Shown here in pieces: positions 52,776 to 62,373 of a stretch of 64,000 bases of DNA. The DNA comes from an uncultured Lentisphaeraceae bacterium. Lineage in GTDB: Bacteria; Verrucomicrobiota; Kiritimatiellia; RFP12; DVOR01. Both the position numbers and the translations under genes were made by a program. The notes beneath the pieces were generated by a model. That model saw nothing but the letters and a program-made list of their open reading frames with translations. It did not search any database and was not told the origin of the DNA. The stretch's first letter is position 1; each line of letters starts with the position of its first letter. The stretch is taken from contig CASDPK010000009.1 in assembly GCA_949282555.1 (NCBI GenBank), positions 1 to 64,000 of the forward strand, read 5' to 3'.

Positions 52776-53552
52776 TTATTCAGCCGCGAACGTGCCAGGC
52801 TCAGGCGTTTCCACACAGACCAAAGGCCCGTTGTAGGGAATCTGGTAGAGTCCGCCATTCATGCGGGTGTAGAACCAGAGCTCGGGCTCGTCGCCGGGGT
52901 TCATCGCCTGACGCTCGGCCATGAGCACGGGGCGCACGCCGGTGGGATCGGCCAAGATGATCTTGCACTTCGTCTCAATGCCCATCAGGTTGATGAAGAA
53001 GCCCTCATCCGGCTGGGAATCGTCCCAAATGAGCCGCTCACCGAACACGATGAACTGTCCACGGGAACAGATCGTCCCATACTCAGCGGTGTGAACGTTG
53101 ACCACCGACTCGATCTTCGGCAAGATCACCGGCTGGACGCGCTGCACCGAGCTCTCGGCGGCGGCCGTGCGCAAACGGCTCCCCACCATCGCATTCACCA
53201 CCACCTGATGCCGGGCGGGATCGAACGCGTCATCCTCGGAAGTGAAGGTCCCGCGGATCGCCGGGGCAAAGCGTACCACGCCGCCCACATTCACCGCACG
53301 TCCTTCCGCCACCAGCTTTGCGACCAGCTCGGCGAACTCCGAGATCACCAGCGTGATCGTCGCCGGACGCACCGCACAGCCTTCCGCCGCCATACGCTCA
53401 GCGACATCGACAATCGTGTAGGTCTCCTTCGGGGTCACCACGGCGGTATAGACCGGCTCCCCCTTCTGTTTGGTTGCTGCGGCGTTCTCCACCAGATGAT
53501 AGGTGATGTTGTTGAGATTCGACGCAGTTTCAGTCTTCATGACAGTGGCCAT
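52776..53552 (-). CDS. HU-like DNA-binding domain plus DUF4469 Ig-like domain protein
   Basis: 258 residues. Residues about 10-120 form a divergent HU/IHF-like domain (TPKETYTIVDVAERMAAEG, ISEFAELVAKLVAEGRAVNV, GVVRFAPAIRGTF), and residues about 160-255 an Ig-like DUF4469 tail (VFGERLIWDDSQPDEGFFIN, GDEPELWFYTRMNGGLYQIP). Such proteins are common and multiplied in Bacteroidetes and PVC genomes; they bind DNA, and the exact role is not known. ATG 53552 has AAAGGAGG 7 bases upstream. Between it and the small peptide gene a strong hairpin (52698-52713) may attenuate. Confidence 0.85.
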   Translation of the reverse strand: MATVMKTETASNLNNITYHLVENAAATKQKGEPVYTAVVTPKETYTIVDVAERMAAEGCAVRPATITLVISEFAELVAKLVAEGRAVNVGGVVRFAPAIRGTFTSEDDAFDPARHQVVVNAMVGSRLRTAAAESSVQRVQPVILPKIESVVNVHTAEYGTICSRGQFIVFGERLIWDDSQPDEGFFINLMGIETKCKIILADPTGVRPVLMAERQAMNPGDEPELWFYTRMNGGLYQIPYNGPLVCVETPEPGTFAAE

Positions 53553-53790
53553 TGTTGGCCTCCTTTCGTTCACCCCTCAAAGGCCGCCGGGCAACCGCGC
53601 CCAACCGTGCCACGCCCGAACCGGGGATCTCCGCCCGAACGCACCCTTGCGCACGACACGACACCGCACGCGACACCCCTCCACAACCCATTGATTCACC
53701 GCGCGTTCTCCACACGACACCCACCACACCACACACGACAGACGCAGATGGCCCCCGCCCTCACCGCAAGCCCCGCCGCAAGCGCTTTGC

Positions 53791-53802: not shown

Positions 53803-54666
53803 ATGGTCACAGAAATCACAAGCCTCGCCAATCCCAAGATCAAAGACGTCGTCCGCCTCCGCCAACGCAGCCACCGCGACGATGCCGGCCTCATGCTCAC
53901 CGAAGGCTACCGCGAAATCCGCCGCGCCCTCGACCACGCCTACCGCCCCACCGCCCTCTTCTATTGCGAGGACCTCTGGCTCAAACACGAACACGAGCCC
54001 GACATTCTCGAACGCTGTGCGGCGCTCGGCGCCAAATTGTATGCCTGCACGCGCCCCGTCTTTGAGAAAATCGCCTACCGCGAACGCCCCGACGGCCTCC
54101 TCGCCGTCGGCCCCCAAATCGCCTGCACCCTTCGCGACCTCCACCTCCCCAAAGACGCCCTCATCCTCGTCTGCGAATCCATCGAAAAACCCGGCAACCT
54201 CGGCACCATGCTCCGCAGTGCCGACGCCTCCGGCGCCAGCGCCGTCATCGTCTGCGACCCCTGCACCGACATCCACAACCCCAACGTCGTCCGCGCCTCC
54301 ACCGGCACCCTCTTCACCCTCCCCGTTGCCATCGCCACCGCGGAAGAAACCGTCGCCTGGCTCAAAGCCGAAGGCTTCGCCCTGATGGCCGCCACCCCCC
54401 ACGCCGAAAAACTCTACTTCGAGCAAAACCTCACCGGACGCGTCGCCCTCTGCCTCGGCAGCGAACAATACGGCCTCACCGACCACTTCATGCACGATGC
54501 CAACCTCCGCGTCCGCATCCCCATGCTCGGCGTCGCCGACAGCCTCAACGTCTCCGCCGCCGCCACCATCCTCCTCTCCGAAGTCGTCCGCCAACGCATC
54601 CTCTCCGGCCAAATCCGTCCCCCCGCCCCGGAACCCTGGCACGGCGAAGCCCAGCACGACCACTGA
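53803..54666 (+). CDS. SpoU/TrmH-family RNA 2'-O-methyltransferase
   Basis: 287 residues. An N-terminal substrate-binding domain (NPKIKDVVRLRQRSHRDDAG, LMLTEGYREIRRALDHAY) precedes the SPOUT knot: LILVCESIEKPGNLGTMLRS (motif 1), CLGSEQYGLT (motif 2) and IPMLGVADSLNVSAAATILL (motif 3). It methylates a ribose in tRNA or rRNA. The last codons (WHGEAQH) recur just downstream in a repeat, so the gene end is part of a duplicated unit. Confidence 0.93.
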   Translation: MVTEITSLANPKIKDVVRLRQRSHRDDAGLMLTEGYREIRRALDHAYRPTALFYCEDLWLKHEHEPDILERCAALGAKLYACTRPVFEKIAYRERPDGLLAVGPQIACTLRDLHLPKDALILVCESIEKPGNLGTMLRSADASGASAVIVCDPCTDIHNPNVVRASTGTLFTLPVAIATAEETVAWLKAEGFALMAATPHAEKLYFEQNLTGRVALCLGSEQYGLTDHFMHDANLRVRIPMLGVADSLNVSAAATILLSEVVRQRILSGQIRPPAPEPWHGEAQHDH

Positions 54667-54895
54667 GCAAATCAACTCCCTCCTAAAAAGCCTAAGGAGA
54701 GAGGAACGAGCGTATTATGTGAGCAAAACCATAAGCGCGTGCTGGTTTGCAATCACCTAAACTTGAATCAAACTTCTCAAATCCATTGCCAAACTTCTCA
54801 AATCATTTGAGAACCTGAAGCCTCATTTGAGAATTTGCACCCATTGCCAGTCGACTTCCCGACACGCACCTGGCACGGTGAAGCCCAGCACGAGC
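54664..54895 (+). repeat. Repeat unit, copy A (with half-site array A)
   Basis: About 230 bp that recurs at 56746-56975 (copy C), with the second half also at 56611-56745 (copy B). It holds CTAAAAAGCCTAAG, an ACGAGCGTATTATGTG stretch and the TTCTCAAAT array at 54774-54833. The SpoU-end-like stretch (CCTGGCACGG...) follows it at 54864. This region (54667-55014) holds no gene. Confidence 0.8.
54774..54833. promoter_or_regulatory. Half-site array A
   Basis: TTCTCAAAT at 54774-54782 and 54795-54803, then a one-base gap and ATTTGAGAA at 54805-54813 and 54825-54833. The centre is the perfect 19-bp palindrome TTCTCAAATCATTTGAGAA, flanked by outward half-sites at 21 and 20 bp, near two helical turns. 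Confidence 0.7.
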
Positions 54896-55014
54896 ACCAA
54901 TCCCTCACGAGGGCATCCACACGGAAGCCAAGTTCACAAAAGAAACCAAAGCCGACAGGCGGAAGCCTGCCAACTTTGGTTCGTGAGGGAAAGAAATAAC
55001 CGCAAAACGACTAC

Positions 55015-56508
55015 TCAATCACTTGATGCCGGGAAGGCCCCGTCCTTTTCCGAAAAAACGTATCTTTGCTTAGAGCTTCTCGGGCGTTCGGGATAACACA
55101 ATCTTAGTTTACCCTCCTCAAGCAACGGAGTAACATAACGAGACATTGCATAAGAGATAGATTTGATTCCCAAAAAGGCGGCGATTTCACGCCGAGTACG
55201 CGGAATCGAACAAAACCCACACAAATCCTCCCCAGCCTTTCTTGCCACAACCAAAGGTATTGAAACGGATAGATCGCGTATCGCGAGGGAGCGTGTCTTG
55301 AGACAGACGACAAATTCCCCCCTGTCACTGGAGAACTCCGGTTCGGGAAGTCCGGCATCCGCCATCGCCCGACGAATACGGGGAATCCCAGAATAACGAT
55401 TTTCCGTTTGACCGAGACTCTCCATTGCGAGGATGAGCTCAGGATTACGCGTGTCTGGCTGAACCATTCCAAGCTGATCAATCCCAATCCGCCCATAAAT
55501 GCCTCCCGGATTCCGAATTTCCATCCGGTCTTGGAACATAATGAGCTGAATAGGCTTACTTTCGGTATAGCGACTGTAATCACGATGGACCAACGCATTA
55601 AGAATCGCCTCACGCACCGCATCGAGGGGATATTCCGGAACATCCTCACGTTGGCCGGAATGTGGATTAATCCGAACCTCCATCCGCATATTGCGCTTGA
55701 CGAAAGCAAGCGCCCCCTCGAGCATTTCCGAAAGACCTCCCTCCATCCGGGCGCTGTCCAAAAAGCGAGCGCCGGCATCATTCAATTCTCCCGCTTCATT
55801 GCCGGGCAAACGAGTGGCAACAATGGACAACTGTGGAAAAAGCGACTGTGGATAGAACCCAAAAAGCAAAAGAGCCGTGAGCGTGCATTGACCATTCCGC
55901 TTGATGAACGTCAACTCATACAAGTGTTCCCGGGAGACCTCATTCAGATTGGGGCGATCCTTGGTTCGTATTTGGAGATAAGTCTCAAGAGCCTTGGAAT
56001 CAAGAAGCGTCTCACACAAGCCCTCGACCGGCCGCAAATCATCCTTGATTTGTTTCCGATAAGCCTCATAACTGTAGACCTCATAGTCCGTCATCGGCTT
56101 GTCAGCATCGCCAACACGCACGAATGACCCCCGTATACGTCCAAGTGCGCGCTTAAAACAAGGACGTTCCGAAAGATCCAAAGGCGGAATTTCCGCCGTA
56201 ACAAAATGAAGCCCATTTTCTGTGTAAACAGAAAGAATCGGACGAACGACGGGATACATTTCCTCCCCTATTTCCTGCAACTTCCGTTGGAGATCATTCA
56301 CATCATAGACCCCCACCTTGGCAAATGCCTGCCCCTCATCCAATCCAAAGAGAAGAATCCCCCCTTCATTTTGGTTGGCAAATGCCGAAAACGTATCATA
56401 GAGCCTGCTTGGACATCCCTTATGCGCAGCCTTAATCTCCAATGTCTTCAACTCACAGGGCTGTCGTCCAACCTTATCCAAAAGAGCCTTAAATTCTTCT
56501 TCGACCAT
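55015..56508 (-). CDS. AlbA_2/Schlafen-type domain and HATPase_c_4 transcriptional regulator-like protein
   Basis: 497 residues. Residues about 20-130 are an AlbA_2 (Schlafen) domain: LEIKAAHKGCPSRLYDTFSA, FANQNEGGILLFGLDE and RGSFVRVGDAD. Residues about 290-410 are an HATPase_c_4 domain (YPLDAVREAILNALVHRDYS, RMEIRNPGGIYGRI), and a winged helix ends the chain (RREIAAFLGIKSISYAMSRY). Such proteins are linked to stress, defence and gene control; no function is proven for this one. GGAGGTG precedes ATG 56508. It is AT-richer than its neighbours and lies between copies of an operator-like array, so it may bind them and be acquired. Confidence 0.82.
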   Translation of the reverse strand: MVEEEFKALLDKVGRQPCELKTLEIKAAHKGCPSRLYDTFSAFANQNEGGILLFGLDEGQAFAKVGVYDVNDLQRKLQEIGEEMYPVVRPILSVYTENGLHFVTAEIPPLDLSERPCFKRALGRIRGSFVRVGDADKPMTDYEVYSYEAYRKQIKDDLRPVEGLCETLLDSKALETYLQIRTKDRPNLNEVSREHLYELTFIKRNGQCTLTALLLFGFYPQSLFPQLSIVATRLPGNEAGELNDAGARFLDSARMEGGLSEMLEGALAFVKRNMRMEVRINPHSGQREDVPEYPLDAVREAILNALVHRDYSRYTESKPIQLIMFQDRMEIRNPGGIYGRIGIDQLGMVQPDTRNPELILAMESLGQTENRYSGIPRIRRAMADAGLPEPEFSSDRGEFVVCLKTRSLAIRDLSVSIPLVVARKAGEDLCGFCSIPRTRREIAAFLGIKSISYAMSRYVTPLLEEGKLRLCYPERPRSSKQRYVFSEKDGAFPASSD

Positions 56509-56610
56509 AACGCCACCTCCATTGAACTCCGTGACACCCCACAGGATACCAAAATTCATAAAATGCGTTGATAAAATTTCTTAAAACAGATCAAAATCCG
56601 TAAAGATTTA

Positions 56611-56745
56611 ACGAATCTTCTCAAATCCATTGTCAAACTTCTCAAATCATTTGAGAACCTGAAGCCCCATTTGAGAAGTTGCATTCATTGCCAGCCAACG
56701 CCCCGACACGCACCTGGCACGGCGAAACCTAGTCTTGAACGTTCG
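56611..56745 (+). repeat. Repeat unit, copy B (second half only)
   Basis: Matches the second half of copy A, including the array and the CACCTGGCACGG stretch, and lies just upstream of the AlbA-type gene's start. Confidence 0.75.
56618..56677. promoter_or_regulatory. Half-site array B
   Basis: TTCTCAAAT at 56618-56626 and 56639-56647; ATTTGAGAA at 56649-56657 and 56669-56677. Spacings are the same as in A. It is about 110 bp before the AlbA-type gene, and contains TTGACA on that gene's strand. Confidence 0.7.
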
Positions 56746-56975
56746 CGAATCAACGCCCTTCTAAAAAGCCTAAGAACAGAAAAACGAGCGTATGATGTGG
56801 GCAAAACCATAAACGCGCGTTGGTTCGCAACCCCCTAAACTTGAATCAAGATTGAATCAAAATTGAATCAAACGTCTCAAATCCATTGTCAAACTTCTCA
56901 AATCATTTGAGAACCTGAAGCCCCATTTGAGAAGTTGCATTCATTACCAGCCGATCCCCGGTACACTCCTAGCAC
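56746..56975 (+). repeat. Repeat unit, copy C
   Basis: Full-length relative of copy A, with small insertions of TTGAATCAA units. Confidence 0.75.
56874..56933. promoter_or_regulatory. Half-site array C
   Basis: GTCTCAAAT (one mismatch) at 56874-56882, TTCTCAAAT at 56895-56903, ATTTGAGAA at 56905-56913 and 56925-56933; same spacings as A and B. Confidence 0.65.
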
Positions 56976-57843: not shown

Positions 57844-58539
57844 TTACTTAGAGATACCATCAACCGACAACGTGGCTCCCGCCTGCGATGTCGTTAGCCA
57901 AAAACTTGCCCCTAGAGTGAGTTTCTCAGTCACTGGAACATAGTCCTTATCCAGCCACCCGCCATAATCTTTCCAGTAGGAATAAACAGCATACGTGTCA
58001 CCCTTCCTTACCTGTATCTCGTCCCCATCGGATAAACCACTCCAATTTGCGTTACTGTTCAAATCCAACGCAACAGGAAGCCCTAATGAGACCATTTGCA
58101 ACCCAGCCTCACTCACATACTTGTATTCACCAGCTACAACAGCACCTCGAAGGGTGATGTCAACTGAACGTCCCGGCGTCTTTAGCCAAAACGCCGTTCC
58201 CGGAACCAGTTTTTGTGTTGCAGGATTAAAGCTTTCGTCAAGCCACCCGCCGTAATCTTTCCAGTAGGAATAAATGGTATATCTATTTTCAAAGGGCTTA
58301 TCCTTGTTATAGACTTGAAGTTCGTCACCGTCTTGAAAATCCCCATCTATAACTTGTGCTACAGATTGAGGCTCCCCATCCAGTCCGGTAAAAACCGCCC
58401 CCAGCATATTGAATCCAGGAGTCGTTCTCACCGTCGTGTAACCGACGATGTCGCTTTCAACGGCGGCGGATAGACGCCCGTTAAAAAACAGCAGTCCCGC
58501 CAGTAGGGCTGCGCAAGCTAAAATTCGTTTGACGTCCAT
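57844..58539 (-). CDS. Secreted 'VGYTT' two-repeat protein of cassette 1 (intact head)
   Basis: 231 residues. Signal peptide MDVKRILACAALLAGLLFF, then NGRLSAAVESDIVGYTT, the conserved block, and two internal repeats, each with GDE(L/I)QV...YSYWKDYGGWLD followed by (A/S)FWL(K/T)T. Such 'VESDIVGYxT' secreted proteins recur in Kiritimatiellota and relatives; function unknown. This is the only one of the four visible copies with a ribosome binding site (GAGGAG), a start codon, a standard signal and a well-formed promoter (58643-58671), so I take it as the expressed copy. Confidence 0.8.
   Translation of the reverse strand: MDVKRILACAALLAGLLFFNGRLSAAVESDIVGYTTVRTTPGFNMLGAVFTGLDGEPQSVAQVIDGDFQDGDELQVYNKDKPFENRYTIYSYWKDYGGWLDESFNPATQKLVPGTAFWLKTPGRSVDITLRGAVVAGEYKYVSEAGLQMVSLGLPVALDLNSNANWSGLSDGDEIQVRKGDTYAVYSYWKDYGGWLDKDYVPVTEKLTLGASFWLTTSQAGATLSVDGISK
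58432..58482 (-). repeat. Conserved 5' block, copy 1
   Basis: Encodes NGRLSAAVESDIVGYTT. DNA is nearly identical to the blocks at 58991-59046, 61474-61539 and 62404-62468 (core ACGGGCGTCTATCCGCCGCC), while sequence beyond the block differs. Confidence 0.85.
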
Positions 58540-58642
58540 CTCTCTCAACTCCTCTCGCAGAGGCAAAAGCCTGACAAATCAGTCTTTCAACGGTGTTCAT
58601 CAACGCCTCGTGACTCCCTCTCGGGGCACGAACAACACCATC

Positions 58643-58928: not shown

Positions 58929-59627
58929 ATGGAGAAAACTCGCCAAAACCCACTTATATCGGCCTTTGGTTCCTTTTTTGGCCATGTGAATCTAAACGGG
59001 CGTCTATCCGCCGCCGTTGAAAGTGATGTCGTTGGATACACGACGACAGCTTTGCCTCTTGGTTATTCTTTGGTTGGCCTTCCCTTCGATAGTCTTAATG
59101 GCAAAACCTCGCTTTCCATTCAAGATATCAGTATTGAGAATAGTCAAGTGGGTGATGTAATTCAATACTGGGAGAATGATCTTCTACAATCTGCCACATA
59201 TCGTATCCGCAATGGTGTGAGTGGTTGGTGGAAAAGTTTCACAGAACTCTCGACTAAGACATTTAGTCCGGGAGAAGGGTTTTGGGTTCGGAAAAATGCG
59301 GAGGGAAATCTTACTTTTTCCGGAAAGTTGGTGGATCTTGACAAGGTGACAACGATAACCGAAGCAGGCAAATTTGTCCTCATTAGTCCGAAACTTCCAA
59401 AAGAATATGCGGTCAATGATATTTTATTCGAGGGTATTTCAACTGGTGATCAAATCCAGTATTGGGATGGGGACAAGCTTGTATCGTTGACATATCGTAG
59501 TCGGGGCGACATCACAGGTTGGTGGAGTAATTTCACTACATTGTCGGATAAGGTGTTCGCTCCGACAGAAGGGTTTTATCTTTTGACTAAGACTCCTGTC
59601 ACCGTTAAGTTTCCTGACGTTCGTTAA
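58929..59627 (+). CDS. 'VGYTT' two-repeat protein of cassette 2, doubtful N-terminus
   Basis: 232 residues from ATG 58929. NLNGRLSAAVESDVVGYTTT is the block; two repeats follow (GDVIQYWENDLLQSATYRIR and GDQIQYWDGDKLVSLTYRSR, each with a GWW(K/S)xFTxLS and EGF(W/Y)). The first 20 residues (MEKTRQNPLISAFGSFFGHV) are unlike cassette 1 and are a poor signal peptide; no good ribosome binding site precedes the ATG. The body is intact, so this is either expressed from an odd start or a silent copy. Confidence 0.65.
   Translation: MEKTRQNPLISAFGSFFGHVNLNGRLSAAVESDVVGYTTTALPLGYSLVGLPFDSLNGKTSLSIQDISIENSQVGDVIQYWENDLLQSATYRIRNGVSGWWKSFTELSTKTFSPGEGFWVRKNAEGNLTFSGKLVDLDKVTTITEAGKFVLISPKLPKEYAVNDILFEGISTGDQIQYWDGDKLVSLTYRSRGDITGWWSNFTTLSDKVFAPTEGFYLLTKTPVTVKFPDVR
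58991..59046 (+). repeat. Conserved 5' block, copy 2
   Basis: Encodes NGRLSAAVESDVVGYTT; inverted relative to copy 1, 508 bp away. Confidence 0.85.
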
Positions 59628-60843: not shown

Positions 60844-61530
60844 TCATTGAGCCGGGGAGGAAAACTCAAGTGTTCCATTCGAGCGCATCTTATTGAATAC
60901 AAAGCATTCATCGGCAGAGATACTATCTGTCGTGACCTCTGCCTCCACCGTGCCATCAGCACCCACTTTGTGCCATCCGGTGGTTGTCAGAACGTAAGAC
61001 GTGTACGCTTTTGTCGTGGGATCGAGACGCTGGAGCGTATCAGCCCTACTTGGATTATCGTTTGCATAGAGTGTTCCAGCGAGCGAGCTGATAGCCATTG
61101 AGACAGGATATGGATTGGCGACAAGATTGAGGCCACGCTTGAGCGTCACGCTCTTAGATGACTCCGAAAGGACTTCTCCTGCCGCAAGAATTGAGCCCGC
61201 TTCACGATTCTTATAAAGAAAAACTCCTTGCCCTGGGGCAATGACATCTGTTGTGACAGTGTCCTCACCATCTTTTGTCCACCCTTGGGTCTTATAATAA
61301 TACGTTGTGTAGGCTTTCGTGTCAGGATCTTGCACTAAAAGATAATCCGCACGCGCAACATTGTCATTCGCATAAAGATTCCCAGAGAGCTGAGCGATTG
61401 GATATCCCTCTTGGGAACCCTCTAAGGACAAAAACGGAACCGCAAGGGCAAAGAAGCCACGGGGAAGTGACGTCGTCGTGTAGCCGACGATGTCGCTTTC
61501 AACGGCGGCGGATAGACGCCCGTTTAGATG
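60844..61530 (-). pseudogene. 'VGYTT' two-repeat gene of cassette 3, without start codon
   Basis: From HLNGRLSAAVESDIVGYTTT the frame is intact to its stop and encodes two repeats (LYANDNVARADYLLVQDPDT and LYANDNPSRADTLQRLDPTT, each then TKAYT and GW). Upstream the frame stays open but has no ATG, GTG or TTG with a ribosome binding site; that DNA is the promoter and first codons of the antitoxin gene on the other strand. It should be silent unless recombined onto an expressed head. Confidence 0.7.
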
Positions 61531-61539
61531 CGCAGAAGG
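61474..61539 (-). repeat. Conserved 5' block, copy 3
   Basis: Extends further than copies 1 and 2: with copy 4 it shares CTTCTGCGCATCTAAACGGG before the core, about 65 bp in all. Inverted relative to copy 4. Confidence 0.85.
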
Positions 61540-61554
61540 TATGTGAAGATGTGT

Positions 61555-61560
61555 TATAAT
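61555..61560 (+). promoter_or_regulatory. Extended -10 box of the toxin-antitoxin operon
   Basis: TGTTATAAT (TGn plus perfect TATAAT), 22 bases before the antitoxin start; the -35 is poor. Confidence 0.5.
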
Positions 61561-61582
61561 CAAAACCAGAAGGAGGGCCGCG

Positions 61583-61750
61583 ATGATTCCTACAACATCT
61601 GATTCTGTCGCGCAAAGACAGTTGATGGAAGCGCTTCGCGCCGCGCAAAAGAAGATTGTCGCTGAAGGAAAACGTGCACAGTCTTGCATAGAGGAACAAC
61701 GGCGACGGGCCATCGCCGAACGCGCAAAGTTGCTTTGGGGGGCGAAGTGA
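61583..61750 (+). CDS. Putative antitoxin (55 aa) of the zeta-type toxin
   Basis: MIPTTSDSVAQRQLMEALRA continues as an alanine/arginine-rich helix (QRRRAIAERAKLLWGAK). The size, helical nature and coupling to a downstream kinase fit an antitoxin. AAGGAGG lies 6 bases before the ATG. Its stop overlaps the toxin start (GTGA). No known antitoxin family is recognised. Confidence 0.6.
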   Translation: MIPTTSDSVAQRQLMEALRAAQKKIVAEGKRAQSCIEEQRRRAIAERAKLLWGAK

Positions 61751-62373
61751 AGCCTCGCTGTCTTGTCGTTGCCGGGCCGAACGGTTCCGGAAAGACATCC
61801 ATTACGGAACAATTGCATGAATTAAAGCATCGATGGATGTTGGGATGTGAATATATCAATCCCGACAAAATCGCAGAGGAGCAGTTTTCCGGATGGAACG
61901 ATGCCGCCTCTATTCGCTTGGCCGCGGAAAAGGCCGAGTCCTTAAGGGCATTATGCTTAAAAGAGCGACGAGATTTTGCCTTCGAGACGGTCTTTTCCGT
62001 TCGTCAAAAAGTGGACTTCCTTCGCGAAGCAAAAGAATGCGGCTATTTTATCCGCTTTTTTTTCGTTGGGACGGATACGCCACTCATCAATGCGGCTCGT
62101 ATCGCCAAGCGTTACATTAATGGCGGTCACACGGTACCTATTGAAAAGGTCGTTGACCGTTATAGTCGCTCTATGGCAAATGCGCTTGAGGCCGCAACAT
62201 TTGTTGACCGCGCCTACTTTTATGATAATTCTGCGGAATTTCAAGACGGCGTAAACCCAGAATGGACGCCCCTGTTTCGTACGCAAGACGGGTGTCTTTG
62301 TGAAAAATATCCCCGACCCACCCATGCTTGGGCTCAAGAAATCTACGATCGTTTGAAATTCCACACCCTCTGA
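61747..62373 (+). CDS. Zeta-toxin-family AAA kinase
   Basis: 208 residues. RCLVVAGPNGSGKTSITEQL is the Walker A loop; YINPDKIAEEQFSGW, DFAFETVFSVRQKVDFLREA and RIAKRYINGGHTVPIEKVVD with RYSRSMANALEAA follow in zeta order. Zeta toxins phosphorylate UDP-N-acetylglucosamine and so stop wall synthesis; this small member may have another target. The start is GTG 61747, overlapping the antitoxin stop. The module lies between inverted copies of the conserved block. Confidence 0.85.
   Translation: MKPRCLVVAGPNGSGKTSITEQLHELKHRWMLGCEYINPDKIAEEQFSGWNDAASIRLAAEKAESLRALCLKERRDFAFETVFSVRQKVDFLREAKECGYFIRFFFVGTDTPLINAARIAKRYINGGHTVPIEKVVDRYSRSMANALEAATFVDRAYFYDNSAEFQDGVNPEWTPLFRTQDGCLCEKYPRPTHAWAQEIYDRLKFHTL

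What the first reader, a model, noticed from the sequence alone, without database searches (positions are those of the whole stretch)
54774..56933. Three copies of a symmetric 60-bp half-site array around an AlbA/Schlafen-type regulator
TTCTCAAAT occurs as F-F.R-R with exact spacings (21, 1 and 20 bp) in all three copies, centred on a 19-bp palindrome. Copies flank the gene at 55015-56508, one just upstream of it. Spacing near two helical turns suggests cooperative binding by a dimer, perhaps the encoded protein or a nucleoid factor. Alternatively this is a mobile intergenic repeat with an accidental passenger.
Basis: partly seen in the sequence, partly recalled or inferred. Interest (0 to 1): 0.7.

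Follow-up and report, generated by a model that had tools for sequence, protein, structure and literature searches.

The report
Self-addressed operator array of Schlafen-like gene
The three repeats are most likely copies of the switch by which a lone, patchily distributed Schlafen-like gene controls itself; its relatives in other bacteria each carry a similar, helically phased repeat array just upstream, but built from a different word, as if every gene copy had a private address.

Summary
TTCTCAAAT lies F-F.R-R at offsets 0/21/31/51 in three 60-bp copies; 11 of 12 half-sites are exact (the third copy begins GTCTCAAAT). Within the 2.43-Mb genome the array occurs only here. It is not a dispersed mobile repeat: the copies belong to a ~234-255-bp tandem segment that includes the 3' end of the neighbouring SpoU methylase gene, so they multiplied in place. 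The gene 55015-56508(-) encodes a Schlafen/SAMD9-like AlbA_2 domain, a GHKL ATPase-like domain and a C-terminal winged helix. Upstream regions of 43 relatives are strongly enriched in internally repeated words (839 pairs vs 57 expected; 30/43 significant). Upstreams of other genes in the same loci (2/49), gene interiors (0/43) and other HATPase_c_4 proteins (3/23) mostly are not. Repeat distances are phased at ~10.5 bp (20-21, 31, 41, 62), and the word differs between members. Best explanation: a gene-private operator array for autoregulation by the encoded winged-helix protein, with copies 1 and 3 as orphan or auxiliary operators. Binding and repression are inferred, not shown. Covariation of operator and winged helix could not be separated from whole-protein descent.

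The parts
55015..56508 (-). Gene: SLFN_AlbA_2 (res. 20-140) + HATPase_c_4 (318-403) + Fic-like_C winged helix (438-483), 497 aa
   Evidence: Pfam hits, AlphaFold model pLDDT 84, Foldseek to 3lmm, 2kyy and pig SLFN11 N-terminal domain
56618..56677 (.). Array copy 2, F-F.R-R, proposed operator 110-169 bp upstream of the start codon
   Evidence: relatives carry arrays upstream of the gene too
56874..56933 (.). Array copy 3 (first half-site GTCTCAAAT, one mismatch)
54774..54833 (.). Array copy 1, beyond the 3' end of the gene (orphan or auxiliary operator)
54795..54813 (.). 19-bp palindrome, copy 1
56639..56657 (.). 19-bp palindrome, copy 2
56895..56913 (.). 19-bp palindrome, copy 3
56631..56636 (-). 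TTGACA (-35-like) hexamer inside array 2 on the gene's strand; no good -10 found (weak)
   Evidence: sequence; promoter scan finds no minus-strand promoter
54943..54982 (-). Intrinsic-terminator-like hairpin after the gene (18-pair stem)
54635..54663 (+). 3' end of the SpoU methylase gene, the source of the duplicated border
   Evidence: C-terminus PWHG-type conserved in the genus
54869..54897 (+). Second copy of the methylase 3' end (start of tandem unit 2)
56713..56732 (+). Third, partial copy of the methylase 3' end (start of tandem unit 3)
54667..54771 (+). Segment X of unit 1 (86% to 56745-56849), no detectable relation to the gene leader
56745..56849 (+). Segment X of unit 3

Best explanation
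The array is the private operator of the Schlafen-AlbA_2/HATPase_c_4/winged-helix gene. The C-terminal winged helix reads TTCTCAAAT. Dimers sit on the central 19-bp palindrome and on outer half-sites two helical turns away, on the same DNA face. This cooperative complex controls, most likely represses, the gene's own transcription and keeps a potentially growth-inhibiting Schlafen-like effector low until a signal releases it. The array tripled by local tandem duplication; copies 1 and 3 are orphan operators that may titrate or loop. Shown: the sequence facts, locus confinement, in-place duplication, the subfamily-wide phased arrays with member-specific words, and the predicted domains. Inferred: binding, repression, effector activity.
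For: Upstream regions of 43 members: repeated 8-mer pairs 839 vs 57.4 expected, 30/43 at p<=0.01, gene interiors 0/43. Other genes' upstreams in the same loci: 2/49. Other HATPase_c_4 proteins: 3 of the measurable ones (about two dozen) at p<=0.01, against 5/5 subfamily members. Direct-repeat distances in 33 non-redundant arrays peak at 20-21, 31, 41 and 62 bp (period 10.5, R=0.48, n=112); control R=0.09. In L008 the half-sites overlap a TTGACA-17-TAAAAT promoter, and in L053 TTCTCAAAT lies in the promoter spacer. Repeat coverage is somewhat higher in predicted promoters (0.46 vs 0.38, p=0.04). The array is confined to this locus in the genome. The model shows a winged helix with a likely recognition helix at 451-464. 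Operator similarity follows protein similarity (Mantel p=0.002), high above 90% identity and mostly low below 80%.
Against: No binding or expression data. The partial correlation of operator with wHTH, controlling for the rest of the protein, is not significant (0.09, p=0.10). No convincing -10 box is seen for the window's gene, and array 2 is further upstream than in many relatives. Some members show no significant array (e.g. L020, L031, L050). Downstream regions also show repeat enrichment in 16/40, though mostly of words unrelated to the upstream one. Copy 1 has no evident gene to control.
Confidence: 0.72

Rival explanations
1. A mobile intergenic repeat (REP/MITE-like) with an accidental passenger gene.
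For: Three near-identical copies flank a gene; the gene is patchy among species.
Against: No other copy in the genome; none in 58 relatives apart from one short simple-sequence match. The repeated unit includes the 3' end of the local methylase gene, pointing to in-place duplication.
Confidence: 0.04
2. Binding site of an unrelated host regulator or nucleoid protein.
For: Phased AT-rich half-sites could suit many DNA-binding proteins.
Against: A host factor would be expected to have sites elsewhere; none found. The word changes from relative to relative while the gene stays.
Confidence: 0.08
3. The arrays are recombination or insertion sites recognised by the element (terminal repeats of a cassette).
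For: Direct copies on both sides of the gene here and in L059; the gene sits alone between unrelated chromosomal-looking genes.
Against: Only 2 of about 40 members share array words downstream; no recombinase domain in the protein; in relatives arrays lie in promoter regions.
Confidence: 0.07
4. An RNA or cruciform hairpin (nested F1-R2 and F2-R1 pairing) acting in attenuation or as a structured RNA.
For: All three copies fold better than shuffles (z about -2.8 to -4.3).
Against: Many relatives' arrays are mostly or all direct repeats that cannot form such a hairpin (L025, L045-L047); the copy-3 change breaks a pair without compensation; no Rfam match.
Confidence: 0.07

Closest known systems
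TrlG of the Photorhabdus temperature-restricting locus (PMC7554251)
   Same: AlbA_2 plus HATPase_c_4 architecture; a conditional growth-arrest gene with patchy distribution
   Different: Part of a three-gene operon with a separate regulator gene; only the two domains are described; no operator array reported in the passages read
DIP2311 of Corynebacterium diphtheriae (PDB 3lmm) and RecG-related 2kyy
   Same: Closest solved structures by sequence and fold
   Different: About 18% identity for 3lmm, 26% for 2kyy; structural-genomics entries without assigned function
Schlafen / SAMD9 tRNase-type AlbA_2 domains (PDB 7fex, 9o0d)
   Same: Fold match of the N-terminal domain; conserved acidic residues E19, E24, D57
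   Different: Vertebrate proteins of other architecture; nuclease activity of the bacterial protein untested; the 9o0d match is weak (E 0.0045)
Autoregulated operator arrays with half-sites on one helix face (iteron- and phage-repressor-like; general knowledge)
   Same: Repeated half-sites about two turns apart near the promoter of the gene that encodes the presumed binder
   Different: Here the word differs between members at 55-80% protein identity, and the presumed binder is also the presumed effector

Membership tests
SLFN_AlbA_2 / HATPase_c_4 proteins | Both Pfam domains above the gathering score | tested here: met
   PF04326 37.5 bits (cut-off 25.3), PF13749 80.3 bits (cut-off 26); all 11 members of A1
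Fic-like_C winged-helix proteins | C-terminal winged helix matching PF21247 | tested here: met
   27 bits, exactly at the cut-off; 8 of 11 relatives match (two of the others were cut short in A1); winged-helix secondary structure in the model
Schlafen-type tRNA nuclease | Acidic active-site residues | tested here: inconclusive
   E19, E24 and D57 conserved in at least 37/38; spacing only resembles the vertebrate triad, compared from memory
Schlafen-type tRNA nuclease | RNase activity | not testable with these tools
   needs a biochemical assay
Autoregulatory operator | Repeated sites upstream of the gene across the family | tested here: met
Autoregulatory operator | Bound by the encoded protein and changes its transcription | not testable with these tools
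   needs binding and reporter assays
Mobile intergenic repeat (REP/MITE) | Dispersed genomic copies | tested here: not met
Known anti-phage defence system | Match to a described system over its whole length | tested here: not met
   PADLOC-DB gives only partial matches to pAgo-type models

The most novel reading that the evidence does not exclude
A subfamily of stand-alone Schlafen-like effectors, each of which is its own repressor and carries a private, rapidly changing phased operator, so that alleles spreading between bacteria do not cross-regulate one another, like immunity groups of temperate phages.
Probability: 0.4. Interest if true: 0.75.

Novelty: new variant of a known kind. Interest (0 to 1): 0.58.

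Why it matters
Prokaryotic Schlafen-like proteins are widespread and little characterised, and one relative stops growth in Photorhabdus. A family in which each gene carries a predictable address would give an immediate handle on its regulation and on DNA recognition by the Fic-like_C winged helix. It would also provide dozens of natural protein-operator pairs for studying how binding specificity changes.

Tried and rejected
(1) Mobile repeat: rejected by whole-genome searches. (2) Segment X of units 1 and 3 as a decayed leader or gene start: not above shuffles (local alignment p about 0.77-0.79). (3) Structured RNA: no Rfam match, and the hairpin is not shared by relatives. (4) Empty-site comparison at base level: the methylase is found in 14 other species of the genus without the array, but flanks are too diverged to place borders. 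(5) wHTH-specific covariation with the operator: partial Mantel not significant. (6) Viral collection: none with the single query, two distant hits with an alignment; plasmid collection one hit. (8) Paper searches found no description of these arrays; the library is incomplete, so this is weak evidence of novelty.

Full report
OBSERVATION. TTCTCAAAT has 12 exact matches in the window where 0.44 are expected, and 11 of them make up the three arrays. Offsets are 0, 21, 31 and 51 in every copy; the only deviation is GTCTCAAAT at 56874. The array is unique to this locus in 2.43 Mb: 95-base BLAST, palindrome with three mismatches, and F-N12-F with three mismatches (plus one weak site on another contig).

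LARGER REPEAT. The arrays sit in longer copies. Unit 1 is 54635-54868. Unit 2 begins at 54869 and resumes near 56595 after the gene. Unit 3 is about 56713-56967. Each unit starts with a copy of the last bases of the SpoU methylase gene. That gene's C-terminus (PWHG-type) is conserved across the genus, so the chromosomal gene end is the source and the copies arose by duplication in place. Units 1 and 3 share a 105-base segment X which unit 2 lacks, having the gene there instead. X shows no relation to the gene's leader or start. The order of insertion and duplication is unresolved. In an Akkermansia relative (L009/L053) a promoter with a diverged half-site is followed by a gene remnant (residues 368-474) and then by a second promoter and the full gene, so tandem duplication and partial loss do occur in this family.

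GENE. The product has SLFN_AlbA_2, HATPase_c_4 and Fic-like_C and is followed by a terminator-like hairpin. A model built on 38 sequences (pLDDT 84) matches 3lmm, 2kyy and the pig SLFN11 N-terminal domain (E<=0.001), and more weakly the SAMD9 tRNase domain and GHKL kinases. E19, E24, K26 and D57, and the ATPase-domain residues E300, N304, H308, D310, G335 and G339, are conserved in 37 or 38 of 38.

FAMILY. Relatives at about 35-60% identity occur patchily, one per genome: 12 of 288 genomes in the phylum sample (the window's own included), 15 of 300 in the family of an Oscillospiraceae genome and 19 of 76 in a genus that appears to be Akkermansia (judged from L009/L053). Neighbours differ from locus to locus and look like ordinary chromosomal genes in most (judged by eye from the protein starts, not by a database search).

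ARRAYS IN THE FAMILY. Immediately upstream of most members is an array of repeated short words: TTCTTATG (L044-L047), CTTCACTTT (L055-L058), AATAAGTGAA (L048), GTAACA (L011), AATTAGATAA (L016), TTAGTGTTGAT every 21 bp (L025), AAGCAAAAT (L040), and TTCTCAAAT/ATTTGAG in L008. Enrichment: 839 repeated pairs against 57.4 expected; 30 of 43 at p<=0.01; interiors 0 of 43; upstreams of other genes in the same loci 2 of 49. Among other HATPase_c_4 proteins of the phylum only three of about two dozen have significant upstream repeats, whereas all five subfamily members in the same set do (start codons there were taken mechanically). Distances between direct repeats cluster at 20-21, 31, 41 and 62 bp; the control regions show no such phase. 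The distances within one array are not fully independent, so the Rayleigh p-value (about 5e-12) should be read as descriptive; some of the 43 members are close relatives, which is why the phasing was done on 33 non-redundant ones. Downstream regions are also enriched (16 of 40), but their words are mostly unrelated to the upstream word; only the window and L059 clearly share array words on both sides, and terminator hairpins may account for part of the rest.

MECHANISM. Upstream position, two-turn spacing, overlap with predicted promoters 20-35 bp from the start in many relatives, confinement to the locus, and a winged helix in the product together favour autoregulation by the product. That it represses, and that release lets an inhibitory Schlafen-like activity act, is inference. 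It is aided by the published growth arrest caused by TrlG, which shares the two main domains (PMC7554251). For the window's own gene the promoter is not clear: a TTGACA lies inside array 2 on the right strand, but no good -10 was found.

SPECIFICITY CHANGE. Above 90% protein identity operators agree (mean similarity 0.81, 15 pairs); at 50-60% they mostly do not (0.04, 284 pairs). Operator similarity tracks both the winged helix and the rest of the protein and the two cannot be separated.

VERDICT. A real and well-formed feature: very likely a gene-private autoregulatory operator array of a Schlafen-like winged-helix protein, multiplied in place. The array as a family trait with member-specific words was not found described in the papers searched.

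Noticed in passing
L009 600-1480 (same locus as L053): Tandem paralogue: promoter plus half-site, then a gene remnant (residues 368-474), then a second promoter with TTCTCAAAT and the full gene.
   Followed up: partly
L059, both sides of the gene: Array words of the upstream region recur downstream of the gene, as in the window.
   Followed up: partly
window 61684-62373 (+): Zeta-toxin/AAA_33-like kinase gene.
   Followed up: no
window 52776-53573 (-): HU-type DNA-binding domain protein (HU-DNA_bdg / HU-HIG).
   Followed up: no
window 57844-58566 (-), 58929-59627 (+), 60844-61818 (-): Three ORFs share the segment NGRLSAAVESD(I/V)VGYTT, interspersed with PEP-CTERM-type proteins of alike C-termini.
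   Followed up: no
window 56841-56873: TTGAATCAA in three tandem 11-bp copies in unit 3 only (one copy in unit 1).
   Followed up: no
L025 (MT836711.1): Record named Bacteriophage sp., but its neighbouring ORFs look bacterial (MATE-like transporter, glycosidase-like), so it is probably not phage.
   Followed up: no
L061-L075: The context 3' of the methylase differs among species of the genus; several have an HIT-like gene directly downstream.
   Followed up: no
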